45,728 nucleotides of DNA from the IMG/VR virus record IMGVR_UViG_3300021142_000055, positions 1 to 45,728 of that record; one strand, given 5' to 3'. Below are positions 8,091 to 38,200 of this stretch, one piece after another. Source of the stretch: a virus. The translations under genes were made by a program, and so were the position numbers. Below the pieces are notes generated by a model that saw only the letters and a program-made list of their open reading frames with translations, searched no databases and was not told the DNA's origin. Within the stretch, counting starts at the first letter, position 1, and the number at the start of each line of letters is the position of its first letter.

Positions 8091-10070
8091 ATGCAATATA
8101 CAGATAAATTATCAAAAGGGTTTTTAACAGGTAAAGGTACCTTTATAACCAACCAATCGTCACCAGGACAAATTGGTGCAACAAGGTGGGATGTTGAAGA
8201 TCCTACATATCTTGGTTTTTATTGGCATATTATTCCTGAGACTGTAACTGACCCACTTAATTATGATTTGGATTATTTACCACAAGGATTATTTTTAGGA
8301 GCAAACAACAATAGTGTAGCAAATGCAAGTGTTGTTGGTGATCCAAATAATAAAAATTATGGTAAAGAACACCCAGATTCAGCCGTGAGCTATTTACAGA
8401 GAATTGGCGAATATTACAGAGCTGATATGATTAAGGAGTTTCGTTATGGTATGATAAAAATATTAGAAGAAAGCCCTTGGTCATTTGACAAAATCACAGG
8501 ATTAGGTGAGATGACTAAAATTAATCCTAAAGATAATTTTAGAGCAAAAGATAAAAAACTTATCTTTGAAGGTAATGACACAATGAACATGCGTCTTACT
8601 TATTTAATGGATTTATATCGCAAAGCTGCATTTGATGCAGAATATATGAGATGGATGTTGCCTGAAACTCAACGTTATTTCTCAATGAGAGTAGTTGTGG
8701 CTGAAATAAGAACGATGAACGATGGACATGGTGGCTTATTTGAGCCTGCCACATTTTTAGAATTTGTTTTTGATTATTGTGAATTTACAATTATTGAAGA
8801 CGGCCTTGATCATATACAAGATCTTAATAATTATCCTGGAGAATCTGCTAGAGTTAAAATAGGAATTAAAGTTGGGAGAATTAGAGAAAAAAACTCTTAT
8901 GGCTTATTAGGAGCAATATTGTTTGACACAATATATCCTTATTACAGAGATGCTAGTTTTTCTACATCAGCATTTACATCTATTACACAACCAGCAGGTA
9001 GAGGCGATAAAGTAACACAGGCTTTTTCAGCTATGCCTGCGTATAGATCGCCTGGAGGTAATGCAGACTTTACTTACGGAGATGATAAAAGAAGACAAAC
9101 AGAACAAGCTTTTCAGTCAGCAAATGGTGTAGTAAAAACAGGTGGTATGAATGGCATCTTAGGTGCCTTTTCAAATGCAGTATCTAGGGATGTTAAAAAT
9201 TTAGTTCAAACAGCTGTTAACGGAGCTGTTTTAGGCAATGTTTACGGCTTATCTATTGCTAATTTATCTGCTCAGATAAGTAGCATTGCACAGGATCCTT
9301 TGTCAGCAGCGCAAAGTACAATATCAAAGTACGGCACTTCATCATCTAGAGGTCCTTTAGAAAATGTTTTTGTAGATCAAGCAACGACAGCTGGATTACA
9401 AACTTTTGCTAGTCAGTTAGCATCAGCTCAAGCTGAATATTCATTAGCTATTAAAGCATCAAAAGCATCACAAGATATTTCAGGAAATCTGGGTAAAGAG
9501 TCTATAGGAAACGCAGCTAATATTATAGGAAATCCGGGTAAAGAGTCTTTAACATCAGCATTTATACCTAATTCTAATCCAGGTAAAGAGCAATTAGGAA
9601 ACGCTGCAAATCCTGAAGGTAACCCAGGTAAAGCTTTTAACAATCCTTTAGCTTCATCAGGATTAAATAATGCTTTAGATAAAATTTTATTAGGAGGTGC
9701 TACTTCATCATTAAGTGGCAATTTAGGCAAAGAATTATTATCGTCTGTGCCATCTTCAAGTATAGCTCCTGGAAATGTATCCTTAGATGGTGAAAAAACT
9801 AATATTCTTGGTAACCCTGGCAAAACAAACTTAATTGCGCCTAATGCAGAACAAGTTAATTTAGGTAAAGAGTATCTTGCTACTAATGGTGCTAATACTG
9901 AAGGACAACCTGGAAATGTTAAACTAACAGGTGAAAACTCAAATACAGATGGTAACCCAGGTTCTTTATCTCTAGATGGAGCTAATAGAACACAACAAAA
10001 ATTAGGTAAAGAACCATTAATTGCACCAAATATTGATAAAACTAATTTAGGAAATATTAACTTAAAATGA
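8091..10070 (+). CDS. Tube-like hub protein with NPGK-repeat C-terminus (659 aa)
   Basis: Residues 1-290 look like a tail-tube/tube-initiator domain: YLMDLYRKAAFDAEYMRWML, then ETQRYFSMRVVVAEIR and FDYCEFTI are typical of gp19/gp48/gp54-type proteins. Residues 300-460 are Ser/Ala/Gly-rich. From about residue 463 to the end there are imperfect repeats of 14-17 residues built on G-N-L/P-G-K-E-x-L, separated by Asn/Ala/Ser-rich spacers. I count about ten. The start is the ATG at 8091, 16 bases after the hub gene. The stop overlaps the spike start (ATGA at 10067-10070), so the two are translationally coupled, suggesting a matched ratio in the hub. The repeat tail is unusual for a tube protein. 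Confidence 0.65.
   Translation: MQYTDKLSKGFLTGKGTFITNQSSPGQIGATRWDVEDPTYLGFYWHIIPETVTDPLNYDLDYLPQGLFLGANNNSVANASVVGDPNNKNYGKEHPDSAVSYLQRIGEYYRADMIKEFRYGMIKILEESPWSFDKITGLGEMTKINPKDNFRAKDKKLIFEGNDTMNMRLTYLMDLYRKAAFDAEYMRWMLPETQRYFSMRVVVAEIRTMNDGHGGLFEPATFLEFVFDYCEFTIIEDGLDHIQDLNNYPGESARVKIGIKVGRIREKNSYGLLGAILFDTIYPYYRDASFSTSAFTSITQPAGRGDKVTQAFSAMPAYRSPGGNADFTYGDDKRRQTEQAFQSANGVVKTGGMNGILGAFSNAVSRDVKNLVQTAVNGAVLGNVYGLSIANLSAQISSIAQDPLSAAQSTISKYGTSSSRGPLENVFVDQATTAGLQTFASQLASAQAEYSLAIKASKASQDISGNLGKESIGNAANIIGNPGKESLTSAFIPNSNPGKEQLGNAANPEGNPGKAFNNPLASSGLNNALDKILLGGATSSLSGNLGKELLSSVPSSSIAPGNVSLDGEKTNILGNPGKTNLIAPNAEQVNLGKEYLATNGANTEGQPGNVKLTGENSNTDGNPGSLSLDGANRTQQKLGKEPLIAPNIDKTNLGNINLK
9478..10065 (+). 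repeat. Coding repeat array: about ten GN(L/P)GK units
   Basis: Within the 659-residue protein, units such as GNLGKESIGNAANIIGNPGK recur from 9478 to the end of the gene. Core residues Gly, Asn, Leu/Pro, Gly, Lys and often Glu-x-Leu are kept, while spacers vary from 9 to about 20 residues. At the DNA level GGTAAAGAG/A and AA(C/T)CC(A/T/G)GG(T/C)AAA words recur but are diverged, indicating old repeats under protein-level selection rather than recent duplication. Confidence 0.75.
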
Positions 10071-10780
10071 AAGGATTAAATTTAGACATATTAAAAGGAT
10101 CTTATTTAGTAGGAACGATAGTTGATAATAATGATCCTGACAAAGAAGGACGAGCAAGAGTTCGAGTATTTGGACTTTATGATGATATACCTGATGATAA
10201 ATTACCTTGGTTTCACCCAGTAGGAAAAACTATGTTTGCTGGAGGCGCTGACGGTTTTGCTAATATTTCTATTCCGAAAATTAACACAATTGTACAAGTA
10301 CATTTTTCTGAAGGTAATTTATACTCAGGAGAATACTCGTCAATACAAAATTTTAGTGAAGACGTTAAAAATGAAATATCTGACACATACTTAAATTCGC
10401 ATGTACTTGCTTATGATGCTGATGAACAATTAAAATTACTTTACACACCAGGTAAAGGACTAATAATTTATTTAAAAAGTTCGGAAATAAATATTGCAGC
10501 TGATTCAAGTATAACAATATTACACAAAGATTCAAAGAGTTTAATATCTTTAGTAGGTGATACGATAACAATTGCGTCCGATAATACTGTAAACATTACA
10601 TCTGAAAATTGTAATGTTGATTCTCCTAATATTACTTTAGGTAAAGGAGCAACTGAATCTTTAATATTAGGAGATACATTTAAGGAATTGTTTGATCTTC
10701 ATACTCATCCAGGTCCTAATACTCCACCAACATTGCCTTTACCTACAGGTGTTTTAAGTAAAAATACTAAAACTAAATAA
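10067..10780 (+). CDS. Baseplate central spike, gp5/gpV-like without lysozyme (237 aa)
   Basis: The membrane-piercing tip of the tail. Residues 10-95 form an OB-fold: GTIVDNNDPDKEGRARVRV is the usual first strand pair, followed by PWFHPVG and a VQVHF strand. Residues 125-200 are short repeated beta strands with alternating hydrophobics, as in the trimeric beta-helix needle. His212-Thr213-His214 near the C-terminus matches the His-x-His pattern that coordinates metal at the tip of P2 gpV-type spikes, here followed by 23 further residues. There is no lysozyme domain, unlike T4 gp5 (575 aa). The gene overlaps the tube-like gene by 4 bases. Confidence 0.85.
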   Translation: MKGLNLDILKGSYLVGTIVDNNDPDKEGRARVRVFGLYDDIPDDKLPWFHPVGKTMFAGGADGFANISIPKINTIVQVHFSEGNLYSGEYSSIQNFSEDVKNEISDTYLNSHVLAYDADEQLKLLYTPGKGLIIYLKSSEINIAADSSITILHKDSKSLISLVGDTITIASDNTVNITSENCNVDSPNITLGKGATESLILGDTFKELFDLHTHPGPNTPPTLPLPTGVLSKNTKTK

Positions 10781-10781
10781 T

Positions 10782-11372
10782 ATGTCATTAGAACGTCAAA
10801 AACAAATACTAGGCACAGCAGGTGATTTAGGTAAAGCTTTACCTTTTTTAGAAGCAATTGCTATTATTGAAAATATTGCTAAAGAATCGCCTGAAATAAA
10901 AAAACAATATGATATTATCAAAAAAGAGAGTAAAGAAAGACGTGAAAGAGGTGATGATGAGAAGCAAATAAAAGATGATGAGGATAAAAAAACCAAAGAG
11001 GTTCTTGATAACTTTAAAAAAGGGCTTAACGATTTTGTCGAACAACAGATTAATATCATAAAACATCAATATAGAGTTGTTAGCGATGGAATTAATCAAA
11101 TTCCTATAGATGTAAGAACAACAATTGCTAATATTATTGTGCCACCTGCTGTAACTGCGCCTCCTGGAGCAGCTAATCCACTTTATGCATTAAATGTAGC
11201 GTTAACTACAAAACATGCTCTGCAATCAACTTTATTAATTATTGTAGTAGCGTTCACAGCAGTAATAGAAGCTGCTAATGCGATTAAATATGCACTTCCT
11301 GATTTTGTCCTTGATACATATCAAGTAATAAAGGATACGTTTGTAATAATATCTGCTATTCCTGAACCTTAA
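10782..11372 (+). CDS. Hub-cluster protein with charged helix and hydrophobic segment (196 aa)
   Basis: Unrecognised protein, one base after the spike stop codon. Residues 34-80 are a long, strongly charged helix likely to form a coiled coil (KKESKERRERGDDEKQIK). Residues 110-135 are Pro/Ala-rich. Residues 147-167 are a hydrophobic stretch (ALQSTLLIIVVAFTAVIEAA) that could insert in a membrane or pack in a helical bundle. The architecture would suit a small internal tail or tip component that meets the membrane, but this is inference from composition and position only. Confidence 0.65.
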   Translation: MSLERQKQILGTAGDLGKALPFLEAIAIIENIAKESPEIKKQYDIIKKESKERRERGDDEKQIKDDEDKKTKEVLDNFKKGLNDFVEQQINIIKHQYRVVSDGINQIPIDVRTTIANIIVPPAVTAPPGAANPLYALNVALTTKHALQSTLLIIVVAFTAVIEAANAIKYALPDFVLDTYQVIKDTFVIISAIPEP

Positions 11373-11415
11373 CAGTTTTTTTAAAAAGATATATACCATA
11401 TCAAAAAATAAAAAT

Positions 11416-12618
11416 ATGAACATTCAAAAAACAACAACATTAGAAGAATCTTCTTGGGATGTAATTATGACCCAAGATAGAAAAACAGCAAACCCAGAAA
11501 TTTTAAAGAAATATGGCGTTAAAGTTTTTAACAATGAGCCATACGCTTTAGATTTTTATGAAAAAGTTTTCTTAGGCGCAGATCCTGAAAGCAAAGAACC
11601 TAAAATAGGAGAAACTAGGAAAATTATAAACATTACTGCTGTAAATGAGAGAGAAATATTAGTAACTTTAAGTGGTCTTATTGACGCAGTCATTGATGTG
11701 AGAAGTGAAAAGCATTTTTGTTCTTTATTAAACATATCACCAGCTGAACTAATTGAATGGCTAAAACTTGATGAAAATAAAGAAGCATTTGTTGCTAGCG
11801 GATATACTGTTGTTGTTGAAATGATTAAACCTTATGTTAAAACATCGTTATCAAAAGGACATTCATTAAAAACAAAAGCTGAGTTTTTCAATGAAATACG
11901 TAAACCATCAGCTGCTTATTACGGTAAAATAAAAGAAAAGAATGGCGGTGGATTTATTATAAATGTACAAGGTGTTGATGGATTCTTACCTGGATCATTG
12001 GCTGCTACAAACATTGTACGCGATTTTGATTCTATGATAGGAAAGGAAATTCCTGTTATGGTTGAAGACTATTTAAAAGAAAGTGATACATTTGTTTTTT
12101 CTTATAAAAAATATATTAACACTGTTCTTAACTCAAAAATTAGTGATCTTGATTTGGACCAAAAATACATAGGTACAATAACAGGTTCAGCTAAGTATGG
12201 ATTGTTTATTGAGTTTAACGATATATTCACAGGACTTATACATACAAGTAAAATGACTCCTGCTACATATTCAAAATTTAATAAAGGATCATTTAAAGCA
12301 GGTGATACAATTGAGTTTTGGATTAAAGAAATTACAGAAGATAAAAAATTAATCTTAACTGATGAAGATCCTTCAATTAGAAGAGGTCAACTTGAAGAAT
12401 TTAAAAATGAAAATTTAGGAAAAACTAAAGAAGCTGAAGTTGTATCAGTTCAGTCTTTTGGGGTTCTTTTTAAATTACAAAAAGATATCGTTGGTTTAAT
12501 TTCTCAAAAAGAAATTAAGTCAAAGAAAAAGAACTTTGCAGTTGGTGACAAAGCAATGGTCACAATTGACAGAGTTTATAATGATAAAATTTTCCTTTCG
12601 TTACCAAATGAAGATTAA
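11416..12618 (+). CDS. Ribosomal protein S1-like, multiple S1 domains (400 aa)
   Basis: The protein is built of S1/OB RNA-binding domains at about residues 163-234 (AYYGKIKEKNGGGFIINVQG, then VDGFLPGS), 246-318 (KYIGTITGSAKYGLFIEFN, then GLIHTSKM) and 334-398 (EAEVVSVQSFGVLFKL, then VGLISQKEI), with a degenerate one at 65-147. In bacteria S1 brings mRNA to the 30S subunit. Bacterial S1 usually has four to six domains and about 350-600 residues. Its presence among tail genes is unusual. A 43-base gap precedes it, containing an AT-rich GATATATACC element, so it may have its own promoter. The last 11 bases overlap the amidoligase-like gene. Possible roles are redirecting translation to phage mRNA or acting as an RNA chaperone. 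Confidence 0.85.
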   Translation: MNIQKTTTLEESSWDVIMTQDRKTANPEILKKYGVKVFNNEPYALDFYEKVFLGADPESKEPKIGETRKIINITAVNEREILVTLSGLIDAVIDVRSEKHFCSLLNISPAELIEWLKLDENKEAFVASGYTVVVEMIKPYVKTSLSKGHSLKTKAEFFNEIRKPSAAYYGKIKEKNGGGFIINVQGVDGFLPGSLAATNIVRDFDSMIGKEIPVMVEDYLKESDTFVFSYKKYINTVLNSKISDLDLDQKYIGTITGSAKYGLFIEFNDIFTGLIHTSKMTPATYSKFNKGSFKAGDTIEFWIKEITEDKKLILTDEDPSIRRGQLEEFKNENLGKTKEAEVVSVQSFGVLFKLQKDIVGLISQKEIKSKKKNFAVGDKAMVTIDRVYNDKIFLSLPNED

Positions 12619-14020
12619 AAAGAATTACTCAAAAACTGAAGTTTTAGACGGTGTAAGAATCGGTTTTGAATTTGAAATGTATTCATCGCTTGATGTTTTT
12701 GAAACAGCAAAACAATTGGCTAAATATACTAAGAAAAGAGTTGTAGTTCCACTATCTCTTAGTGATATTAATAACCCAAAACCTTTATATCATTCACCAG
12801 TTGCACCAACAGCTGATATTTTTAAACTTGAACCTGATTATTCAGGAGGTAAAAATATGTGTGAGCTTGTAACTGGTCCTATGAAATATAGCGATGCCAG
12901 AAACATCTTAATTAAAGTTTTTGAGTGGATTCAATCAAATGGTTATACAAATGAAAGATGTTCTATTCACGTAAACATGAGTATTGATGGTGATGTTATA
13001 CCTACTCTTTCAACAATAGAAAATATTAACATACCTAAATTTATACTTTCTTTTGACGAAGGAAAAATCTTTGATAAATTCCCATCAAGAAAAGATAGTG
13101 TTTATGCTAGAAGTATAAAACAAATTAGGCCAAACCGAGTACTTTTTTATTCTCCTACTTTAGAAGATTTTAGTAGATCTACTTTAACACTTCCTTCTGA
13201 TGAAAAATATTACGGAGTTAATTTTTTGAAAGCTGAAAAAGGTTATCTTGAATACAGATACTTAGGCGGAAAAGATTATGAAAAGAAAAGTAAAACAATT
13301 CTTGATATCATTGAGTATATAGCTATTCATTTATATGATACTTTAAACTTTACAGGATTTACTGAAAAGGAAAGATCTGACTTTAAAAAGATGACAGATA
13401 TTGATAAGAAAATATATGAAGGATTTGCTAGATATGCAGATTTTAAAAAGAAGTTTCCTGATATTAAAGTATCTATTGATATGGTTGATGATCCACAAGT
13501 ACTTGAAGGAGTTTGGGTAAATTTACGAGATAAACTTTTTGATTTAATTATAACAGGTAAAATGTCAAAAGGAGAATTTAATTATGATACTGAATTAGGA
13601 AGATATCAATTAAAAAAGACAAAAGTTGTTAATTGTAAACTTTCTGATTTTGAATTTATTGAATGTGATATTGAAGGTATCATAACAAGATCTTGGTTTT
13701 ATGAATGTAACTTGAAAAATAGTCGTATTACTGAAAGTGAGTTTTTAAAATCAAACACAATAGATTTTTCAAAAATTGCTGAATGCGAATTACATGTAGG
13801 TAATATCTGTAATGACTGTTATATTGAAAATAAAAAACTTGCAATTAACTGTGAAGTTAATCGTGGGGTTATTCGTAATGGTGAAATTGGTAAATTAGCA
13901 AAATTATCAAAAGATACATTAGTTGTTGAAGGCCAGCCTGCTGAAGCTGGTAATGCTGGAAGCAGTTCTTTTAGTGATCCTAATCAAGACAAAAACAACA
14001 AGAAAAGAAAAAAAGAATAG
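12608..14020 (+). CDS. Amidoligase-like enzyme fused to pentapeptide-like beta-helix (470 aa)
   Basis: I choose the ATG at 12608 (MKIKKNYSKTEV); upstream in-frame codons lie inside the S1-like gene. Residues 14-225 have the glutamine-synthetase-like amidoligase pattern (COOH-NH2 ligase superfamily): GFEFEM at 19-24, ELVTGPM at 86-92, SIHVNMS at 119-125 and LEYRYLGGKD at 214-223. Such enzymes use ATP to form amide bonds. Residues 336-440 show repeated short units with hydrophobic or Cys positions every five residues (CKLSDFEFIECDIEG; WFYECNLKNSRI), suggesting a pentapeptide-type right-handed beta-helix. The tail 455-470 is Lys-rich. It is followed by a very acidic small protein and, 1.3 kb on, an amidotransferase-like gene, the usual kind of partner. 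The substrate is unknown. Confidence 0.7.
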   Translation: MKIKKNYSKTEVLDGVRIGFEFEMYSSLDVFETAKQLAKYTKKRVVVPLSLSDINNPKPLYHSPVAPTADIFKLEPDYSGGKNMCELVTGPMKYSDARNILIKVFEWIQSNGYTNERCSIHVNMSIDGDVIPTLSTIENINIPKFILSFDEGKIFDKFPSRKDSVYARSIKQIRPNRVLFYSPTLEDFSRSTLTLPSDEKYYGVNFLKAEKGYLEYRYLGGKDYEKKSKTILDIIEYIAIHLYDTLNFTGFTEKERSDFKKMTDIDKKIYEGFARYADFKKKFPDIKVSIDMVDDPQVLEGVWVNLRDKLFDLIITGKMSKGEFNYDTELGRYQLKKTKVVNCKLSDFEFIECDIEGIITRSWFYECNLKNSRITESEFLKSNTIDFSKIAECELHVGNICNDCYIENKKLAINCEVNRGVIRNGEIGKLAKLSKDTLVVEGQPAEAGNAGSSSFSDPNQDKNNKKRKKE

Positions 14021-14429: not shown

Positions 14430-15215
14430 ATGACTAGAGATGAATTAATAGAATTAATAAATTCTGAGATAACAGGAAGCGGGTCATTACCATATTCAGT
14501 ACCTCCTCGTGAGTCTGAACGTATTATTAATCAAGCTCTTAATTGGTTTTATATTAATTATGGGCCTGCTGTTGAAACACAATATTATGTAATTGAAAAA
14601 TCTTGGTTTACCGACCCTGAGTTTAAAAAAACACGAAGTATTCTATTACCTGATTGTGTTATGTCTGTTACTGAATGTAAAGAAATAAGCGGAGCAGGTA
14701 GGTTAGGTTCAATTGACCGCGATTTTTCTGATAACAGACTTCTTGCTGCTGAAATTTATCTTGCGCCTTTTGCTTCAGATGATTTAGTTTTGAGAACTGC
14801 TCAATATTCTTATTGGGATTTAACTGCAGCATTCATTCTTGATAAAGTTAGATTTGATTTTAATAGAAATACACACAGACTAAAAATAACAGGTCGTGAT
14901 CCTAAAAAGGATGTTTTTATTGATACTCTTGTTAAAATTGAAGAAACAAAATTATATGATGATTGGTTTTTTCAGAGATGGGTTACAGCTCAAACAAAAA
15001 TATCATTAGCAAATATTATAGGATTCTTTCAATTTAATCTTCCTGGAGGAATTGAAGTTAATGGAGATAACTTAAGAGAATCAGGTAAAGAAGAATTGGA
15101 ACAAATAAAACAGAGAATTGATGACGAAAATGCACCTGATTGGTTTTTCGTTTTCCACTCTTTTATAACGCCTATCATTTGTATAGGAAGTTTATTAAGT
15201 AATTTTACAATCTAG
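14430..15215 (+). CDS. Virion-type protein, possibly neck/tail completion (261 aa)
   Basis: Residues 1-45 (MTRDELIELINSEITGSGSL, then PRESERIINQALNWFYINYG) form amphipathic helices, and residues 60-215 are mixed alpha/beta. The opening resembles helical connector or neck proteins of large myoviruses, but I cannot assign it to T4 gp13, gp14 or gp15. After PDWFFVFH (residues 235-242) there is a short hydrophobic tail (SFITPIICIGSLLSNF) that looks like an extension. It ends with TAG at 15213-15215. The 96-base gap after it is A/T-rich and holds only a negligible 20-codon frame. Confidence 0.55.
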   Translation: MTRDELIELINSEITGSGSLPYSVPPRESERIINQALNWFYINYGPAVETQYYVIEKSWFTDPEFKKTRSILLPDCVMSVTECKEISGAGRLGSIDRDFSDNRLLAAEIYLAPFASDDLVLRTAQYSYWDLTAAFILDKVRFDFNRNTHRLKITGRDPKKDVFIDTLVKIEETKLYDDWFFQRWVTAQTKISLANIIGFFQFNLPGGIEVNGDNLRESGKEELEQIKQRIDDENAPDWFFVFHSFITPIICIGSLLSNFTI

Positions 15216-15311: not shown

Positions 15312-16025
15312 ATGAAATATATTAAACTTTTTGAAGACTTTATAAGTAACAAACCAAAGCCTAAGATTGTAATGTATTATGATAAAGGAGTTAGTGTTGA
15401 CACTGCTAGCATTTGGTCCAACTTTTTTCGTGAATATTTTGCTATTGAGCCACATGAAATGAGATCTGACGAATTTGATTATAAAGATTTTAAAAACGCG
15501 GATCTTATTGTTATTCCAGGCGGTTCTAGTGAACTTGAAATTACAGCTATGACTGATAGCGGTAAAGAAGGTCTGAAAAAATTTGTTAATGATGGTGGAA
15601 AAGTTCTTGGCGTATGTGCTGGTGCTATTTTAATATCTGAATGTTATGATTGGTCTTTAGGAATTATTAAAGCACATCATAATAAAGATTTTCATGAGCA
15701 CATTCAAAATAAAACAGCATTTTTAAATTTTAAATTTGAAAATGCAGGCAAAGAAGTTTTTAGCACATTACTTGATGAAGTAAATCTTTATTATCATTGG
15801 GGTCCTGTGTTTGTTAGTGCAGATTCATCTTGTGAAGTTTTATTAAGGTTTAATAGTGAAGTGCCACGAGAATCTAAAGAATCTGAATCATCAATTGATA
15901 AAATAGCATCTATTTATTCAGCATACGGAAAAGGACATGCATTAGCAATAAGTCCACATATAGAAAAAAGTGAAAAAGTTAAATATCTATTAGCTAATGC
16001 TATAAATTACTTATTAAATAAATAA
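15312..16025 (+). CDS. Class I glutamine-amidotransferase-like protein, BPL_N type (237 aa)
   Basis: Residues 17-235 match the amidotransferase-like fold of the biotin-protein-ligase N-terminal (BPL_N) family: PGGSSELE at 69-76, the nucleophile elbow GVCAGA with Cys102, YYHWGPVF at 160-167, and ISPHIE at 213-218 giving His216 and Glu218 to complete a triad. It could release ammonia from glutamine or act as a hydrolase on a peptide-like substrate. Residues 1-15 (MKYIKLFEDFISNKP) are extra to the domain and match the leader of two other proteins here. Its stop overlaps the gp25-like start (TAATG at 16023-16027). With the amidoligase-like gene at 12608 it forms a candidate modification pair. Confidence 0.75.
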   Translation: MKYIKLFEDFISNKPKPKIVMYYDKGVSVDTASIWSNFFREYFAIEPHEMRSDEFDYKDFKNADLIVIPGGSSELEITAMTDSGKEGLKKFVNDGGKVLGVCAGAILISECYDWSLGIIKAHHNKDFHEHIQNKTAFLNFKFENAGKEVFSTLLDEVNLYYHWGPVFVSADSSCEVLLRFNSEVPRESKESESSIDKIASIYSAYGKGHALAISPHIEKSEKVKYLLANAINYLLNK

Positions 16026-16387
16026 TGTTAAAAGAAATTTATTGTAGAAATGAAAATGATCCTTTTTATGTTAATAGGATTTTGGAAACAAAAGATCCAA
16101 TAGAAGCTCTATTAACAAAATTAAGGATGATCCTGTTTACTAAAAGAGGCGAAATTTTAGGTGAACCGGATTTAGGCTTAGATCTTGATTCTATGCTATT
16201 TCAACTTAATTATAATGGTTTCCAAATACAAAGAGATTTTTATGCACAGATAGGTAAGTATTGCCCTGAAGCTAAAAATTATAAAATAGTAATTGAAGTG
16301 AATTTTGTCCCTGGAACTGTTAGAGATATATGTTACATAGATATATACATAGACGGTACAAAATATCTTGGTGTCGTCGGAAAATAA
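16025..16387 (+). CDS. Baseplate wedge protein, gp25-like (120 aa)
   Basis: gp25 is the core wedge subunit that triggers sheath assembly in contractile systems. The diagnostic segment is at residues 41-59, RGEILGEPDLGLDLDSMLF, matching the conserved G-E-x-x-G-x-P-x-x-G pattern. The length is typical (T4 gp25 has 132 residues). The start overlaps the previous stop by one base, and it is followed 10 bases later by the gp6-like gene, the order seen in many contractile phages. Confidence 0.9.
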   Translation: MLKEIYCRNENDPFYVNRILETKDPIEALLTKLRMILFTKRGEILGEPDLGLDLDSMLFQLNYNGFQIQRDFYAQIGKYCPEAKNYKIVIEVNFVPGTVRDICYIDIYIDGTKYLGVVGK

Positions 16388-16397
16388 GACATCATAT

Positions 16398-18101
16398 ATG
16401 GGATTAGACATTTTTAATTATAGCAGAATACGTTTTGACCAACTTTATCAAGACTCTAAAGATTACCTAACAAATAAATTTTTACAAGTAGGTGAAGTAT
16501 TCTCACCAGCAAGTGCATACGGACAACTTTTAGGTGTTATAATTGATTTAGGTAAATTAATTTTTTATTACGTAGAAGATAGTATAACAGAGCTAAACAT
16601 TTATACTGCAACTCGTGATACTTCTGTTCGTAGTTTAGCAAGAATAGCTGGTCATAACCCAACAAGAGCAATTGCTGCAAGCGGTACTGTTTATCTTACA
16701 TATAATGGTAACCCTATTGATATGTACGGTAATACTGCAATCATACCAAATTACACTCGTCTTTCAGACAATTCAACTGGTTTAACATACACACTATCTT
16801 TTGATAGCGAAGATTTGCGTATGCAATTAAGTGGAAGTACAACTGTTGAAGCTAAAGTTGTTCAAGGAGTTATTGAATCTCAGACAGTAACAGGAACAGG
16901 CGAAGTTTTACAATCATATAATATAAATCCAAAAAGAGGATCACAAATTGACAATTTCTTTATTAATGTTTATGTTAATGGAGAAGTTTGGAAAGTTTAT
17001 GATTCAATATACGATATGCCTTACCAAGTAAATGGTGTTGTTGTTAAAACAGGGATTAATGCAGGTATTGACTTGTACTTTGGAAATGGCTTTTTTGGTG
17101 CTATACCTCCTGTAGGATCTTCTATAAGAGTTGAATATTTATCAACAAGCGGTAACGCAGGTAATATATTAGAAGGAGAAGTAGCACAGTTTCAATTTAT
17201 AGATGATATTTATGATTTAGCAGGTAACACTATTTCTGCTAATGATGCAATAGGTATATCTATAGCAAATCCTATTATATTTGGTTCAGATTCAGAACCT
17301 ATTTTTTTAACTAAAATATTAGCTCCAAAAACTTCACGTTCTTATGTTTTAGCAAATACTGATTCATATGTTTATTTCTTAGAAAAATTTAATATATTTA
17401 GTGTCATAGATGCTTTTAGTACTTTTAATGATAATGATATTTCAGATGATAATGTAGTTTATCTTTTTTTAATACCTGACGTAAATAAAAGAAAGCCTTC
17501 TAATGATGATTATTTTACAGTGCCTATTAATCTTTTTACATTAACAGATGCTGAAAAAAATAAAGTATATGACTTCATTGAACAAAGCGGACAAAAAATT
17601 GTAACTACAGTCATAAAAATTGTTGATCCTATTGTTAAAAAATATGTTGTTAACATAAACATAACAGCATATGCAGGATATAGCAAAGATAGCTTAACAC
17701 AACAAATAATATTAAAATGTAGTGATTACTTTTTAGCAAATCGTAGACGTGATCGTATACCAAAATCTGATCTTATTGGAATCATTGAAACTATTCCAGG
17801 AGTTGACTCTGTTAACTTATGGTTTGTTAGCGAAGAGAATGAAGCTTTTAAATCAAATACTGCAAATGTAAGTTCAGCTGATATAGGCATAGATTCTTTT
17901 GGCGATATAATAATTAACCGCGGAGAATATGCACTTATTAGAGGAGGGTGGTCTGATAGATCAGGGTATTTTTATAATGATACATCTATACAGTCTAAAC
18001 CAGGAAGTATAAATATTGCATACGGCGCTGATACATCTAATTCTTTTAATATGGAATTACATCGTATTAATTTAGATAACATAAAATCAACTACAAATTA
18101 A
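16398..18101 (+). CDS. Baseplate wedge protein, gp6/Baseplate_J-like (567 aa)
   Basis: The start is the ATG at 16398; an in-frame TTG at 16368 lies inside the gp25-like gene. The N-terminus (FDQLYQDSKDYLTNKF, about residues 11-26) and residues 49-85 (DLGKLIFYYVEDSITELNIY, then RSLARIAGHNPTRA) are characteristic of Baseplate_J/gp6 proteins. The C-terminal part has YVVNINITAYAGYSK, the beta-alpha domain, and RIPKSDLIGIIETIPGVDSV, another hallmark. gp6 forms the iris ring of the baseplate around gp25. T4 gp6 has 660 residues. The gene precedes an 88-residue protein and the giant wedge protein. Confidence 0.9.
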   Translation: MGLDIFNYSRIRFDQLYQDSKDYLTNKFLQVGEVFSPASAYGQLLGVIIDLGKLIFYYVEDSITELNIYTATRDTSVRSLARIAGHNPTRAIAASGTVYLTYNGNPIDMYGNTAIIPNYTRLSDNSTGLTYTLSFDSEDLRMQLSGSTTVEAKVVQGVIESQTVTGTGEVLQSYNINPKRGSQIDNFFINVYVNGEVWKVYDSIYDMPYQVNGVVVKTGINAGIDLYFGNGFFGAIPPVGSSIRVEYLSTSGNAGNILEGEVAQFQFIDDIYDLAGNTISANDAIGISIANPIIFGSDSEPIFLTKILAPKTSRSYVLANTDSYVYFLEKFNIFSVIDAFSTFNDNDISDDNVVYLFLIPDVNKRKPSNDDYFTVPINLFTLTDAEKNKVYDFIEQSGQKIVTTVIKIVDPIVKKYVVNINITAYAGYSKDSLTQQIILKCSDYFLANRRRDRIPKSDLIGIIETIPGVDSVNLWFVSEENEAFKSNTANVSSADIGIDSFGDIIINRGEYALIRGGWSDRSGYFYNDTSIQSKPGSINIAYGADTSNSFNMELHRINLDNIKSTTN

Positions 18102-31717: not shown

Positions 31718-34700
31718 ATGGGTACAAATAATAATAACAATACAGATAACAGTTTTTCAACAGTTTTAGCAAATTTTATTCGTTTACAGAATAATGCTCT
31801 TGAGACATTGCAACAAGTACATACTGCAACGGTGTCAGCTGCTGATACAGTGCAGATTAATGTGTTAAACCCTGACGGCACAGCTTCAACATATTCAATA
31901 CCTTCTTTTGGATATATTAAAGGTAATATAGATAGAATAGATGAAACAATAGCAAAACTTACAGGTTTTGATGGAAGCGAAGCTTATATAAGAATGCCTG
32001 ATGGATCTTTTAAAAGAATTTATCAAGCTGCTCTTATAAAGAATCCTACTCCGGTTGGTAGTTTAACGGTACCTACTAAATTTATTACAGAAAATAATTA
32101 TTTCTTTGAGAGCATGTATACACCAGCTCTTAAAGTTAGTTTTGATGTAACTCCTTATATTGCACAACAAGAATCAAAAATATATGCACAAAGGTTAATT
32201 TTAAATCTTGATACATCAGATAAAACTAATTATTTTAATACTAGTCTTAGTGGACGAAACGATATAGATTATGTACAACTTCTTGTTGATTTACAAAAAC
32301 AAAATATTAATTATTTTGTGGATGAAGGAGTTGTTGAACTTCCTCTTTCAATTGTAAGATACAATGGCGACTTTTTAGTTGTAAATGTTGATGATAGAAC
32401 TATTACAAACCCTGACGGCAGCACAGGAAAAAAGAGATGGTACTTACTTGATAAATTAACATATACTGATAACTTATCATTATCAAAAGATACATTAACT
32501 TTAAAAGTAGGTGATGAAGTAGTAACAGGTGAAACTATTTATCAAATTGTAGAAATTGATACGTCAACAAAATACATAAGAGTTAATAGAATAAATGGTT
32601 ATGACCCAATTATTGTTGGACAAAATGTTAGTTTTTATTCAGAAACGTTTTCTCCTAAAATAGCAAATGTAGGTATAGGATTTAATGAATCTAATGTAAT
32701 TTTCTTTAGAACTGTTAATGATTCTGAAAATTTAATTTCAACAATATATTCTACAGGTATTGCTTTTTCAACTAATGATTTAAGTACTGATACTGCTTTT
32801 GGCTCAATGTCAATGACAGACTTTTATCAAAAGAATGTTCTTGATTTTGGTAACATATTATTATCACAAGCAAAAGAAAATAAAATATCTGCTATTGATG
32901 GTGTTACTCCTGCGGCTCCAGTTTTAAACTCAGCAAACTTTAATGTTGTATCTATTAATGATCATAAATTAGACCAATCACAAATAGATGCAATTAGAAA
33001 AAAACAAGCTGATAAAATAACTCTTGAGTCAGAGATAACAGAACTTGAAAAAGCAATTGACAACAAAAAAGAAGAACTTAACTCTACTAAGTTTAATTCA
33101 GATACTGAAAGAAGAGGTGTACAAAATGAATTAGATTCTCTAATCAACCAAAAAACTTCTAAATCTTCGTTATACTCTTCAATTGTTAAAGAACTTGCAG
33201 TTATTGCACAAAACCAACCAGCGGCTCTTGATACTCCTATTTACAGAATTAGAGGTTTCTTTAATATACCTGACCCACAGATAAGCAATAAAACAGGTGA
33301 ACAAGATGTTATACAATTCTACATTTATTATAGATACATCAGACCTGATGGAAGTCAAGTAAATGTTCAACAATTTGATTTTACTGATACTAATGGGCAA
33401 GTAAAAAGAGGAACATTTTCAAATTTAGTTTATTATAAAACTGATATTCGTAAAAAAGTTTATGATGTAGGATCAGGTAAATATGTATGGACATCTGAAG
33501 ATATAACAAACCCTGATGCTATTAATATAAATCAAGTTGATATACCTATAACTAAAGGAGAATCAGTTCAGTTTTATGTTGTTGCTGTTTCTGAAGCAGG
33601 CTGGCCTGATAACCCTTTATTATCTTTACCATCTAACGTACTTACTATAAACTTTCCAACTGACTTAACAAGTGAAGACGAAGCAACACTTGCTTTATTA
33701 CAAGCAAATCAAGAAGTTGTAAGAGTTCAATTAGAAGATGATTTAACAGCAAAAGGACTTGACCAACATTTAGAGTCATCTTTTAATGTTAATCAAAAAT
33801 ATTATGCACATGATGCTGATGTAATTAGTTCAAAATTCTACACACCTGAAGGAAACGTTATATCAGTTTATGAAAAACTAAAAGAATTAGAAACAAGAAT
33901 TCTTACATTAGAAAATAGATTATATAATGTTTCAGGAGTACTAAATGTTTATATAATTGACCCAGATAATAAAACAAAAACAGAAGTTACTAATGGTTCT
34001 GTTATTCAATTATTTGCAGGTTATTATCTTGATTACGTTTCGCTTTTACCAGCAAATGAAAGAAGAGGCGCTATAGTTAATAAAATTTATCAAATATCTC
34101 TTGAGAATGGGCAAGCAACTCCTTTACAATTAATTGCAAGATTCCCTGGAGGAATTGGTGCTGCTTTACCAACAACATTAGGTGCAAGCATTCCATCTTT
34201 CCCAGCCGGATCACCATACGATTCTGGTGTTTTATTTGCTACTACACCTGATAACGATTACAATAATTTTAGACAATACGACCAAACACCAATTGTTCAA
34301 CAGTCTATACATAATAATGATACAAATAATGGAAATAAGTATTCAACTGCGTTTTACCAAAGCGGTCAATCAAAAGGTCAATATGCTTATTCAAGATATA
34401 AAGATGTAGGTCTTGTTAATAATCTTTATATAAACCCTACTACAAGTAGATATTACATACCAAATACGCCTACTACTGATGCGTCAGGACAAACTTGGGT
34501 ATGGAATGGAACTTATGATGGAAGTGGCGTTCCTAATAACGGTTTAAATGGGCGTTTATCGGATTTTTGTATACATACAGATCACCCAGCATTAAATGAT
34601 GGTTTTTCTGCATCATTTAGTTCTTTACAATTTCCTACTATACAAATTGATACAACAACAGGTTATCCTATTGCACCTGAAGCAGTAAGTACATTTAGAC

Positions 34701-35296
34701 ATGCTGCTAATGTTGAATTACAATCAACGTCTGTAAATGGTTATCAACCGCAATTAGGATATTATCAAAGTTTTTTACAAAATGTATCTCCTTTTACATC
34801 AACATACACACCAGTTAGTTATGATGAACTTCCTGATAAGTTTGGTTTCTTAACAAATGATAAATACTTAATAGGCAACCAAACTTGTGGATCTTATTTA
34901 TTTTTAGCACCAACTACATTTAATCAACTTAATGTTAATGGAATTGATGCTAGATCAACAAAAGAAATTAATACAGGATCACAAAATGCTATTGTCATTC
35001 CTATAGTTTTTCAATTTAGAATGGAAGATTATTGGGGTCCATCTGGAGGCGCAGGCGCAGGAATTATTGGAGGATATAATAGTGGAACACCACCAACAAA
35101 TTTAACTTATGGCAGAAGAATAGGTATTGATATCTATCAGCAAGATACTACAGCATTTTCTTTTGATGTACAAGTAAGTGCAACTTACAAGAAAACTTCA
35201 TTAACACAAGTTATATCTACCGCGTCTCCTGCAGTTAACACACAAGCGCAAAATATAGTTTATGATAAATATACTATCAAATCACTTACCTCATAA
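31718..35296 (+). CDS. Virion structural protein with coiled coils and FnIII-like domain (1192 aa)
   Basis: Residues 1-70 are helical, followed by the DGSFKRIYQAALIKNPTPVG region that suggests a tight fold. Residues 414-497 form a long coiled coil (ADKITLESEITELEKAIDN). Residues 506-640 look like a fibronectin-III or similar beta-sandwich (PIYRIRGFFNIPDP; GESVQFYVVAVSEAGW). A shorter coiled coil lies at 713-747 (EKLKELETRILTLENRL), and the C-terminal 400 residues are beta-rich with Gly/Asn loops. The protein is presumably a trimeric fibre or baseplate arm. It starts 13 bases after the preceding gene and ends 3 bases before the next. Confidence 0.7.
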   Translation: MGTNNNNNTDNSFSTVLANFIRLQNNALETLQQVHTATVSAADTVQINVLNPDGTASTYSIPSFGYIKGNIDRIDETIAKLTGFDGSEAYIRMPDGSFKRIYQAALIKNPTPVGSLTVPTKFITENNYFFESMYTPALKVSFDVTPYIAQQESKIYAQRLILNLDTSDKTNYFNTSLSGRNDIDYVQLLVDLQKQNINYFVDEGVVELPLSIVRYNGDFLVVNVDDRTITNPDGSTGKKRWYLLDKLTYTDNLSLSKDTLTLKVGDEVVTGETIYQIVEIDTSTKYIRVNRINGYDPIIVGQNVSFYSETFSPKIANVGIGFNESNVIFFRTVNDSENLISTIYSTGIAFSTNDLSTDTAFGSMSMTDFYQKNVLDFGNILLSQAKENKISAIDGVTPAAPVLNSANFNVVSINDHKLDQSQIDAIRKKQADKITLESEITELEKAIDNKKEELNSTKFNSDTERRGVQNELDSLINQKTSKSSLYSSIVKELAVIAQNQPAALDTPIYRIRGFFNIPDPQISNKTGEQDVIQFYIYYRYIRPDGSQVNVQQFDFTDTNGQVKRGTFSNLVYYKTDIRKKVYDVGSGKYVWTSEDITNPDAININQVDIPITKGESVQFYVVAVSEAGWPDNPLLSLPSNVLTINFPTDLTSEDEATLALLQANQEVVRVQLEDDLTAKGLDQHLESSFNVNQKYYAHDADVISSKFYTPEGNVISVYEKLKELETRILTLENRLYNVSGVLNVYIIDPDNKTKTEVTNGSVIQLFAGYYLDYVSLLPANERRGAIVNKIYQISLENGQATPLQLIARFPGGIGAALPTTLGASIPSFPAGSPYDSGVLFATTPDNDYNNFRQYDQTPIVQQSIHNNDTNNGNKYSTAFYQSGQSKGQYAYSRYKDVGLVNNLYINPTTSRYYIPNTPTTDASGQTWVWNGTYDGSGVPNNGLNGRLSDFCIHTDHPALNDGFSASFSSLQFPTIQIDTTTGYPIAPEAVSTFRHAANVELQSTSVNGYQPQLGYYQSFLQNVSPFTSTYTPVSYDELPDKFGFLTNDKYLIGNQTCGSYLFLAPTTFNQLNVNGIDARSTKEINTGSQNAIVIPIVFQFRMEDYWGPSGGAGAGIIGGYNSGTPPTNLTYGRRIGIDIYQQDTTAFSFDVQVSATYKKTSLTQVISTASPAVNTQAQNIVYDKYTIKSLTS

Positions 35297-35299
35297 AAA

Positions 35300-38200
35300 A
35301 TGTTGAACACACCTAATTTTTACAACATAAATTTTGATAGAGAAGTAGTAGTTCAAGGAAGAAATACTACTTTTCTTTCTATTACAAGAAACGAAAACAT
35401 TTTAATGCCTAACCAAAAATTGGTTGTTGTTTTGTATCCTCAAACAGGTACTTGGGAACATCATGCTACTGTTAGTGTTACAGCGTTGGGTTTGCCAGGA
35501 GTTCCTGCAAAAACATGGGACTTTGAATTTAGTCCAGCTGGTGATGATCCTAATGGAGGAAGCTTATGGACAGACCCTAAGTTTGATAGAATGTCTAATG
35601 GCTTAGAGGTTTTAAACTGGTATGATGTTAGTTCAAGTTTAGTAAGTAATGTTTATCCTAGTTCAGGAGTGCCATTACAAGTAACTAATTATAAACCAGG
35701 ATATGGTTTTACTCTTGTGTCTGATGTAGAATTTATACCTAATTCAACATTTACAATTGAGTTAGGAAAATGGGTTTCATCTGATGGTGATAATTGGAAG
35801 ATAAATGGTGGTGATGCTAATTCACAATTAAGTGTATTAAATAATCAAGCATTTACATCTTACTGGGCACCTCTTGATACAACATACCCAAATCCATTTG
35901 ACGGAACAACCTTTTCTAATTACGGAGAAGACACAGGGTTTTTTAGTAGAAAGTCAGCTGTTTGGTTTTCTGTTTATTATGACGATAAAAATATAATTAA
36001 TAATGGTGTTTCTATTCGTGTTGATTATGATGGTATTTCTGATAGTCATTTAAAACTAAACTTTTTAATTATTGCATTAGATAATAATGATACAGTTACT
36101 GAAGATTTAATTAGAGATCCGTCTACTTCTGTTGCTTCAATAACAGGAATTCCTTATGGCTGGAAATCTGGAAGTCCTAGAGAACCACTTCGTGATTATC
36201 AAGAAGTGCATTTCTTTGGATATGTTGAAGATTATGTAAAATCAAAAAGAAATACACAATCTTTTTTATATGATATAGAAAATCCTGTGTACGAGGACAG
36301 ATCATCATATTCTCTTTTAAAAACAAATCCAAGAATTAGTGGTAACGTAAAACTTACATCAGATTCATCAGGTAATATTTGGCTAAATTCTTTTGATGCA
36401 AATGATGAACTTTCTAATTCAACATATAAGAAATATCAAATAAGTTCTAATTCCACATATCAAAAAGATTTATATAACTTCTTTAAAAATGGTACAACAC
36501 CTGCTAATATTGTTTTTGACACATATCAAGTTGATTCACAATACTTAAATATAAAAAGAACATTTGATTTACAATACGATAACTTCTATAACTATGGTGT
36601 TGAACAATTAAGAAGTAAATTTTACGATGAAAACTTTACGTTCTTAGCACCAATCTGGTTAAGAAAAGATGTTCCTGATTTTTTCATTATCTTTAGAATT
36701 GATGAACCTTTAAATATAGATTCATATTTATATACAGGCAACGGACAAAAATTTAATGACTTTTTTAAAGAATCAAGAATCATAAAAACTTTTGATATGC
36801 GAAGCACATCAAAATTAGGATCTTATTTAAGAAAAATAATTAATGATACTCGTTATCAAGAAAGACCTCTGCAAGTAAGTTGGGAAAAAGATATTGCTAC
36901 ATACTGGAATGGTATTTCATATCAAGATGGTTCTTTAACACAAAAAGGAGAATTCTTATATGATTACTATAATATAGATAGACCTATAAAAGAATTTGAG
37001 CAATACATTACAGACGGGTTTAAAAGAAATGGAATAATAAGTTCTAACCTTATAAATTTAGAATTTTTATTTGACGACGATGAAGCGGACTTGTATAGTA
37101 TAAATCGCTATTTTGGTATTTATGTTAAAGAAAATCAATTAGCACAATTCCAAATTGTGCCAGATGTTTTAGGAAATATTTATAATCAATCACCTGAGCC
37201 TATTCCAGGTGTTGACGGTGAGCCTTATAGTACAAGATCGTTTGTTCAAACTAATCCTGATGGTATTCAATTGCCTATTAATTATTATCATAATACATCT
37301 TTTACAAATAACACAACAAACATACCTGCATATCAAGGAGACGTAATTGGGAAAATTCCTTTACCTTCAATGGTAGATGATCCTTTAAGATTCTTTTATG
37401 TTAAAGATCGTAATGATACATTTAAAAGAATTAATAAAATCACAGAAGTTGATTATGGCGTTTTTGGAACAACAGATTATATAAGAGCTACACAAATACA
37501 ACTTTTTGATAATCAAGAAGACATTAGTTCTTATGCAGGTGTAACAAACATAACTACACAGGCAGATGCTGTTTTATTAGATTCAGGTAATGCACAATTG
37601 GTTATTGAATTTTTTGACCAAAATGGTACAGGTGTTTTAGATGAAGAAGAAGAAATCGTTTTAACAGCCGATAATTATAATAGCTATGATAATGATGATA
37701 CTTATTACATACAAGTAACTGAAAATGTTTTTAGCACTTACACTAAATTAAGTTATTTTAAAAATGATTATTTAAGTACATTAACATCTTCATTTACTCA
37801 ACCTGACACAAGTACTATTATCACGATTAATGTTACTGATAGTTCACAATTTATAATAGGTGAAAATATTTATATTATAAGTGGCGGTTATTATCAAGTT
37901 TATGATATTTTACCAGGAACACAAATTAACATTAAAAATTTAGGAATATCAGGTAATGCTGCTGTAGGAGCAACAATTTTTAACTCAGCTCTTATTGGTA
38001 AACAAATAGATGGTGAGGTTATTTATTATGATGATCCTTCAGTAAACTATGCAAATGTTGATAACGAATTAACTATTTACCTTACTCCTTACTTTGCTTA
38101 TTCATTAGGTGATGCTTGGACTGTTGACATTCAAAGACCTTCAGTTACAAAAAATGTTATTAATGGAGTTAATCAAATTGATGCTACAATTAGACAAGAA

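What the first reader, a model, noticed from the sequence alone, without database searches (positions are those of the whole stretch)
11416..12618. Phage-borne ribosomal-protein-S1-like protein in a genome without Shine-Dalgarno sites
Three clear S1/OB RNA-binding domains and one degenerate one make up nearly the whole 400-residue protein. S1 is the factor that brings mRNA to the 30S subunit when Shine-Dalgarno pairing is absent. None of the starts I inspected in this window has a usable Shine-Dalgarno sequence; they follow A/T runs, as in Bacteroidota. A phage S1 could bias host ribosomes to A/T-rich phage leaders, or displace host S1. The link between the S1-like protein and the leaders is inference.
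Basis: partly seen in the sequence, partly recalled or inferred. Interest (0 to 1): 0.85.

Follow-up and report, generated by a model that had tools for sequence, protein, structure and literature searches.

The report
Phage ribosomal-S1-like protein in baseplate operon
This giant-phage gene encodes a shortened, long-diverged relative of the bacterial ribosomal protein that feeds mRNA to the ribosome, and it is the first gene of a set of late tail-building genes, so it probably helps the phage steer host ribosomes towards its own messages, an idea already published for huge phages but never tested.

Summary
The ORF at 11416-12618 is a 400-aa protein with four OB folds. Its best matches are ribosomal protein bS1, not Tex, RNase R or PNPase. 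The predicted structure aligns in register with E. coli bS1 domains 1-4, and its second domain is specifically bS1 domain 2. The window's 26 gene starts show no Shine-Dalgarno (SD) signal above chance; T4 does.

The idea is not new: Al-Shayeb et al. 2020 reported S1-like proteins in huge phages lacking SD sites and proposed the same role. SD absence is also weak evidence, because Bacteroidota (the likely hosts) lack SD sites too.

What this work adds: (1) one S1 lineage spans 53 IMG/VR loci, Lak megaphages and five 462-735 kb phages, outside the sampled canonical bS1s. (2) Most main-clade members keep an N-terminal peptide resembling the uS2-anchoring helix of bS1; it is degenerate in the window's copy. 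(3) The gene sits in the tail module in nearly every lineage, and a strand-specific GATATATA box precedes 29 of 35 distinct S1 starts and most gp6 starts, but almost no neighbours. S1 therefore heads a probable late baseplate operon.

Best reading: a late-expressed bS1 mimic docking on the host 30S. Ribosome binding and mRNA preference are untested.

The parts
11416..12618 (+). S1-like protein, 400 aa, bS1-type architecture: N-terminal peptide, OB1 (degenerate), linker helix, OB2, OB3, OB4
11449..11475 (+). codons 12-20 (SSWDVIM region): degenerate form of the [DE][FI][DN]Wxx[LIF] peptide that occupies the place of the uS2-anchoring helix of bS1
   Evidence: low-confidence helix 14-19
11596..11850 (+). 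OB1 (residues about 61-145), sequence-degenerate, with helical insert at 99-127
11902..12111 (+). OB2 (residues about 163-232), bS1 domain-2 type, GGF...FLPGS signature; the most conserved part of the family
12142..12363 (+). OB3 (residues about 243-316) with the RNA-binding-face residues of S1 domains: Y/F261, F264, H276 (F and H invariant)
12412..12615 (+). OB4 (residues about 333-400), lysine-rich, less conserved
11388..11395 (+). GATATATA box 28 nt upstream of the S1 start: putative phage (late) promoter element
16340..16347 (+). second GATATATA box, 58 nt upstream of the gp6-like gene, inside the 3' end of the gp25-like gene
10067..10780 (+). baseplate hub (gp5-like OB domain), upstream neighbour conserved in the main clade
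   Evidence: (phrog_37871, 2e-20)
12581..14020 (+). conserved protein of unknown function directly downstream (a longer TTG ORF starts at 12536)
14430..15215 (+). protein related to PHROG 211 (annotated 'head-tail adaptor Ad2'), in the S1 transcription unit
   Evidence: (1.8e-12)
16025..16387 (+). gp25-like baseplate wedge subunit, end of the probable S1 operon
   Evidence: (phrog_43)
16398..18101 (+). gp6-like baseplate wedge subunit, first gene of the next unit with the same box
   Evidence: (phrog_219, 7e-27)

Best explanation
The gene encodes a shortened, phage-specific homologue of ribosomal protein bS1 (domains 1-4). It is made late in infection as the first product of a baseplate operon. 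It most likely docks on the host 30S subunit where bS1 sits: the N-terminal peptide and OB1 on uS2, OB2 beside the mRNA exit channel, with OB3-OB4 holding single-stranded mRNA. This would keep ribosomes loading the abundant, SD-less, A-rich phage late messages, in competition with or on top of host bS1. Shown here: bS1-type homology and architecture, family-wide conservation, position in the tail module, and a conserved upstream box. Inferred: the box is a late promoter, the protein binds uS2 and the 30S, and it favours phage mRNA.
For: Homology: all NCBIfam best hits are rpsA/bS1 models (TIGR00717 E=7.7e-23; RNase R and PNPase only 1e-7 to 1e-8). The PDB best sequence hits are bS1 of ribosomes. 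Foldseek's top hit is bS1 of the 30S mRNA-delivery complex 9gut (E=1.4e-19). VIA aligns 324 residues, model 21-400 to bS1 1-351, in register (Z 13.2). OB2 scores 37.5 bits to bS1 domain 2 against 9.2 or less for the other domains. OB2 and OB3 are the conserved domains (mean pairwise identity 0.67 and 0.61, against 0.32 for OB1). OB3 keeps the F and H of the RNA face in all 32 sequences. Anchor: [FIY][ND]Wxx[LFIYVA] in the first 40 aa of 18 of 32 family members and 0 of 488 other ORFs of the same loci; 75 of 80 Flavobacteriales bS1s have it in their first 90 aa. Lak has FNWTPYEDG and LR745206 has FDLLFEDD, like the E. coli helix whose Phe5, Phe9 and Glu10 contact uS2 (PMC10123108). Timing: S1 lies between baseplate genes in the loci that show context; GATATATA precedes 29 of 35 S1 and 27 of 30 gp6 starts but 0 of 35 gp25, 0 of 26 hub and 0 of 32 x12536 starts. 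Precedent: phage bS21 sits with structural genes and is expressed late (PMC9723584).
Against: No ribosome or RNA binding was or could be tested. In bS1 the anchor is OB1; here OB1 is the most divergent domain, and in the window's own protein the anchor peptide has lost the aromatic residue before the Trp (ESSWDVI). The L017-type clade and L060, L061 and L063 lack the peptide. Scores are far below the NCBIfam equivalog cut-offs (80.8 against 577 bits). Lack of SD sites is a host-phylum trait, so it does not point to the phage S1. If the box is a promoter, the S1 mRNA leader would be very short, leaving little upstream RNA for an S1 protein to hold on that message. In Lak phages the gene sits near replication genes, not tail genes.
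Confidence: 0.55

Rival explanations
1. A late RNA-binding regulator that acts off the ribosome: it binds phage late mRNA (or RNA/ssDNA intermediates) through OB2-OB3 as a chaperone, stabiliser or translational autoregulator of the baseplate operon, without replacing bS1.
For: The RNA-face residues of OB3 are invariant while the ribosome-anchoring OB1 and N-terminal peptide are variable or missing in some clades. S1 is the first gene of its operon. Al-Shayeb et al. themselves leave open 'on or off the ribosome'. In Lak the gene lies next to replication genes.
Against: The bS1-specific OB2 (the domain at the mRNA exit channel) is the most conserved domain and is not needed for a plain RNA binder; the uS2-like anchor peptide recurs in most of the main clade, Lak and LR745206.
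Confidence: 0.22
2. A tail or baseplate structural or injected protein: its OB folds serve virion assembly, or the protein rides in the virion and is delivered with the DNA to act at once on host ribosomes.
For: Persistent position among hub, wedge, tube or sheath genes in several huge-phage lineages with different neighbours. OB folds occur in baseplate hubs (Phage_base_V in the hub gene). Chen et al. raise virion packaging for phage bS21.
Against: All sequence and structure evidence points to RNA-binding bS1 domains; no match to a virion OB protein. Lak keeps the gene outside the tail module. Genes of non-structural proteins are common in late operons.
Confidence: 0.1
3. A captured, decaying host gene with little function: a recently acquired bS1 fragment drifting in the phage.
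For: OB1 is degenerate; the length is reduced from about 590 to 400 aa.
Against: OB2 and OB3 are strongly constrained across 32 diverse members (25 invariant residues). The gene is syntenic across family members as distant as 35-37% identity. The phage lineage branches outside the sampled canonical bS1s and no close relative was found in 84,980 cellular genomes.
Confidence: 0.03

Closest known systems
Phage-encoded 'possible rpS1' proteins of huge phages and Lak megaphages (Al-Shayeb et al. 2020, PMC7162821)
   Same: Multi-S1-domain protein in a phage without SD sites; the translation-initiation hypothesis was stated there. Lak and five LR74/LR75 huge-phage records carry homologues of this very family (27.6-32.9% identity).
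   Different: In what was read of that paper, no position in a baseplate operon, upstream box, uS2-anchor-like peptide or bS1 domain-2 assignment was reported; its supplements were not read.
Bacterial ribosomal protein bS1 (rpsA), Bacteroidota type
   Same: Order of N-terminal peptide, OB1, linker helix, OB2, OB3, OB4; bS1-specific OB2; RNA-face residues in OB3.
   Different: Four domains instead of six, helical insert in a degenerate OB1, no C-terminal domains, low identity and below the equivalog cut-offs; separate branch.
Phage-encoded bS21 of Bacteroidota phages (Chen et al. 2022, PMC9723584)
   Same: A phage copy of a 30S initiation-platform protein encoded among structural genes and expressed late; same proposed logic.
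   Different: Different protein; no bS21 was found in 14 records of this phage family.
PhiMa05 cyanophage bS1 (PMC13157829)
   Same: Phage-encoded bS1.
   Different: Reported with five other ribosomal proteins and as acquired from a Vampirovibrio-like host; not compared directly here.

Membership tests
Bacterial ribosomal protein bS1 (rpsA) | Tandem S1/OB domains with bS1 as best match | tested here: met
   bS1 ranks first in the NCBIfam, PDB-sequence and Foldseek PDB searches
Bacterial ribosomal protein bS1 (rpsA) | bS1-specific second domain (FLPGS signature) | tested here: met
   37.5 bits to bS1 D2, 9.2 or less to the other bS1 domains
Bacterial ribosomal protein bS1 (rpsA) | N-terminal uS2-anchoring aromatic helix | tested here: inconclusive
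   Present in 18 of 32 relatives, Lak and LR745206; degenerate in the window protein, low-confidence in the model
Bacterial ribosomal protein bS1 (rpsA) | Score above the NCBIfam equivalog cut-off | tested here: not met
   80.8 against 577 bits (TIGR00717); most Bacteroidota bS1s sampled pass (41 of 61), though 20 do not
Bacterial ribosomal protein bS1 (rpsA) | Association with the 30S subunit and mRNA recruitment | not testable with these tools
   needs biochemistry
Huge-phage S1-like proteins (Al-Shayeb et al. 2020) | Phage-encoded multi-S1-domain protein in a genome with few SD sites | tested here: met
   homologues in the Lak and LR74/75 records
Huge-phage S1-like proteins (Al-Shayeb et al. 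2020) | Same phylogenetic lineage as the Lak and LR homologues | tested here: met
   window family plus five LR sequences supported 97.2/97; all 25 phage sequences together 70.8/86 (moderate)
Single-S1 RNA enzymes (RNase R, PNPase) and Tex | Catalytic domain next to one C-terminal S1 domain | tested here: not met
   no catalytic domain found; four OB folds fill residues 61-400

The most novel reading that the evidence does not exclude
The phage S1 specialises host ribosomes for late mRNAs: a promoter-class-coupled system in which GATATATA-initiated, short, A-rich, SD-less leaders are preferentially recruited by ribosomes carrying the phage S1 instead of host bS1, with the protein possibly also carried in the virion.
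Probability: 0.12. Interest if true: 0.8.

Novelty: new member of a known kind. Interest (0 to 1): 0.5.

Why it matters
How bacteria and phages that do not use Shine-Dalgarno sites choose their start codons is an open question, and phage takeover of the Bacteroidota ribosome has been proposed for bS21 and S1 without an experiment that I found. This family gives a compact 400-aa protein with a conserved mRNA-channel domain, a candidate uS2 anchor that can be mutated, and a likely late-expression signal, so the proposal can be tested directly with purified Flavobacterium 30S subunits.

Tried and rejected
T4-type late box TATAAATA: 13 matches, 12.9 expected, not enriched. bS21 in 14 long records of the family: none; most are fragments, so absence is weak. 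Close cellular relatives of the phage family: none confirmed in 84,980 genomes. SD absence as evidence for S1 function: rejected as non-diagnostic, because Flavobacteriales loci are equally SD-less. PHROGs: no family matched P0001 at E 0.1. One tree used a wrong-frame Sinorhizobium ORF and was redone; in the redo the D5 and D6 domain models were spoiled by misalignment, so only the D2 assignment is relied on. Phage S1 grouping with a second Bacteroidota rpsA-like paralogue (100/100) may be long-branch attraction and is not claimed. 'Acinetobacter phage MD-2021a rpsA' hits lie in a cmk-rpsA-himD gene order, which I recognise from memory as bacterial chromosomal, so I set them aside. A literature search for an S1 protein in a jumbo-phage virion proteome found nothing relevant.

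Full report
1. What is there. The ORF at 11416-12618 is a complete 400-aa gene in a 45.7-kb IMG/VR virus fragment that carries myovirus tail genes: a gp5-like hub at 10067 (phrog_37871, 2e-20), a gp25-like wedge at 16025 and a gp6-like wedge at 16398. Pfam finds S1 domains (4e-16, three stretches). AlphaFold2 on an alignment of 32 relatives gives four OB barrels and a helix between OB1 and OB2 (mean pLDDT 79, pTM 0.49; residues 1-21 below 50). OB1 is barely recognisable by sequence and carries a helical insert at 99-127.

2. It is a bS1 homologue, not a Tex, RNase or PNPase piece. All top NCBIfam models are rpsA/bS1 (7.7e-23), with RNase R and PNPase far below. phmmer against the PDB lists ribosomal bS1 first. 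Foldseek and VIA put bS1 of the 30S mRNA-delivery complex (9gut) first, with 324 residues aligned, model 21-400 to bS1 1-351; the rmsd is large (15 A), as expected for flexibly linked domains, so the weight lies on domain order. With models of each bS1 domain made from Bacteroidota and other bS1s, OB2 is domain 2 specifically (37.5 bits; the others 9.2 or less). OB3 is a generic RNA-binding S1 domain, and its F264 and H276 are invariant in all 32 sequences. Mean pairwise identity is 0.67 in OB2, 0.61 in OB3, 0.53 in OB4 and 0.32 in OB1. In cellular Bacteroidota bS1 the values are about 0.65 for D2 and 0.49 for D1, so OB1 has loosened in the phages.

3. The family. Scans of IMG/VR gave 53 loci. 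tblastn against phage records gave Lak megaphages and huge-phage records of 462-735 kb at about 28-33% identity. A tree of OB2-OB3 groups the window family with five LR sequences (97.2/97) and all 25 phage sequences together with moderate support (70.8/86), outside the sampled canonical bS1s. A scan of 84,980 cellular genomes confirmed no close relative. The lineage is therefore probably an old phage one, not a recent host capture.

4. A candidate ribosome anchor. In E. coli, bS1 is held on uS2 by an N-terminal helix (Phe5, Phe9, Gln7, Glu10), with OB2 beside the mRNA exit channel (PMC10123108). Bacteroidota bS1 has FNWHN(F/Y)EEG in that place. Of 32 phage proteins 18 carry [FIY][ND]Wxx[LFIYVA] within the first 40 residues; 0 of 488 other ORFs of the same loci do. 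Lak has FNWTPYEDG and LR745206 has FDLLFEDD, the latter more like the E. coli form. The window protein has only a degenerate ESSWDVI, and the L017-type clade and L060, L061 and L063 lack the peptide. Docking on uS2 is therefore likely for the family as a whole and less certain for this member.

5. Late, tail-linked expression. In the main clade the order hub, S1, x12536, phrog_211-like, gp25, gp6 is kept wherever the contig shows it; in the 37%-identity clade S1 lies directly before gp25 and gp6. LR756500 keeps the hub-S1-x12536-phrog_211-like order. In LR745206 and LR756502 the gene follows homologues of the window's large genes at 31718 and 35300. In LR756504 and LR756501 it is near tail-tube-like and, in the former, tail-sheath genes. 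Lak is the exception: Thg1 and DnaB neighbours. While reading leaders I found GATATATA upstream of S1. In the family loci plus window it occurs 123 times on the coding strand and 3 times on the other (many loci are near-duplicates, 82 against 2 when redundancy is removed). It lies 20-57 nt upstream of 29 of 35 distinct S1 starts (31 with AATATATA, which the distance range includes) and upstream of 27 of 30 gp6 starts, but of 0 of 35 gp25, 0 of 26 hub and 0 of 32 x12536 starts. In the window it occurs four times, a number expected by chance (4.4), but each copy lies 27-58 nt before a gene. In a 238-kb relative, [GA]ATATATA is 62 to 6 on the coding strand and precedes tail sheath, tail fibre, gp6, S1 and head-protease genes, but also homing endonuclease and (AATATATA) ribonucleotide reductase genes. 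The simplest reading is a phage promoter, mainly of late genes, with S1 the first gene of a baseplate operon ending at gp25. This is inferred from sequence; no transcript data were used.

6. Shine-Dalgarno. The lack of SD is real (1 of 26 against 0.6 expected; T4 20 of 31 against 3.7) and leaders are A-rich. But Flavobacteriales loci are equally SD-less (16 of 357 against 17.9), and Bacteroidota ribosomes sequester the anti-SD (PMC9976891). The correlation of phage S1 with SD absence reported in 2020 could therefore reflect hosts. That the host is a Bacteroidota bacterium is itself an inference, from the leaders and the anchor peptide.

7. Mechanism. Most likely (0.55): a late-made, shortened bS1 that docks on the 30S and supports or biases initiation on phage late mRNAs. 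F. johnsoniae bS1 was reported to increase initiation about twofold on an SD-less mRNA in vitro (PMC9976891), so the activity is plausible. Rivals: an off-ribosome RNA regulator (0.22), a virion or injected protein (0.10), a decaying capture (0.03).

8. Novelty. Phage S1-like proteins and the translation-hijack idea are published (PMC7162821), and the same late-module logic is published for phage bS21 (PMC9723584). This is a new member of a known kind. The operon position, the conserved upstream box, the bS1 domain-2 assignment and the anchor-like peptide are additions that I did not find in the papers read, whose supplements were not available here.

Noticed in passing
window 3640, 11388, 16340, 28691; L002-L062; L189-L200: Strand-specific GATATATA box about 20-67 nt before selected gene starts in this jumbo-phage family (123 coding strand, 3 other strand in 53 loci plus the window); probable phage promoter with no obvious -35 element. 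T4-type TATAAATA is not enriched.
   Followed up: partly
L177-L180 (genomes G074, G038, G042, G058): Some Bacteroidota genomes carry a second rpsA-like protein of about 500-520 aa besides bS1; it groups with the phage S1 lineage in the OB2-OB3 tree, possibly by long-branch attraction.
   Followed up: partly
L023 and L024 (Lak-A2, Lak-B5), around 11890-12999: In Lak phages the shorter S1 homologue lies near Thg1-like tRNA-His guanylyltransferase and DnaB genes, not tail genes; an upstream 292-aa ORF looked sliding-clamp-like by eye but matched no family.
   Followed up: partly
window 10782-11372 and the same slot in L006, L032, L039: The slot between hub and S1 is highly variable: a 196-aa ORF in the window, 900-1,690-aa ORFs in relatives, absent in others.
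   Followed up: no
window 31718-35296 and 35300-42739; L022, L025: Two very large ORFs (1192 and 2479 aa) have homologues close upstream of the S1 gene in LR745206 and LR756502.
   Followed up: partly
L181 (CAKLQH020000011, 'Acinetobacter phage MD-2021a'): Record labelled phage carries cmk-rpsA-himD, which looks like a bacterial chromosomal contig rather than a phage-borne S1.
   Followed up: partly
L197, L199, L200 (238-kb relative): A relative of this phage carries 12 tRNA genes, while the window has none.
   Followed up: no
window about 42870-42980: Start of a further ORF running off the window end, with collagen-like Gly-X-Y repeats, probably a fibre protein.
   Followed up: no
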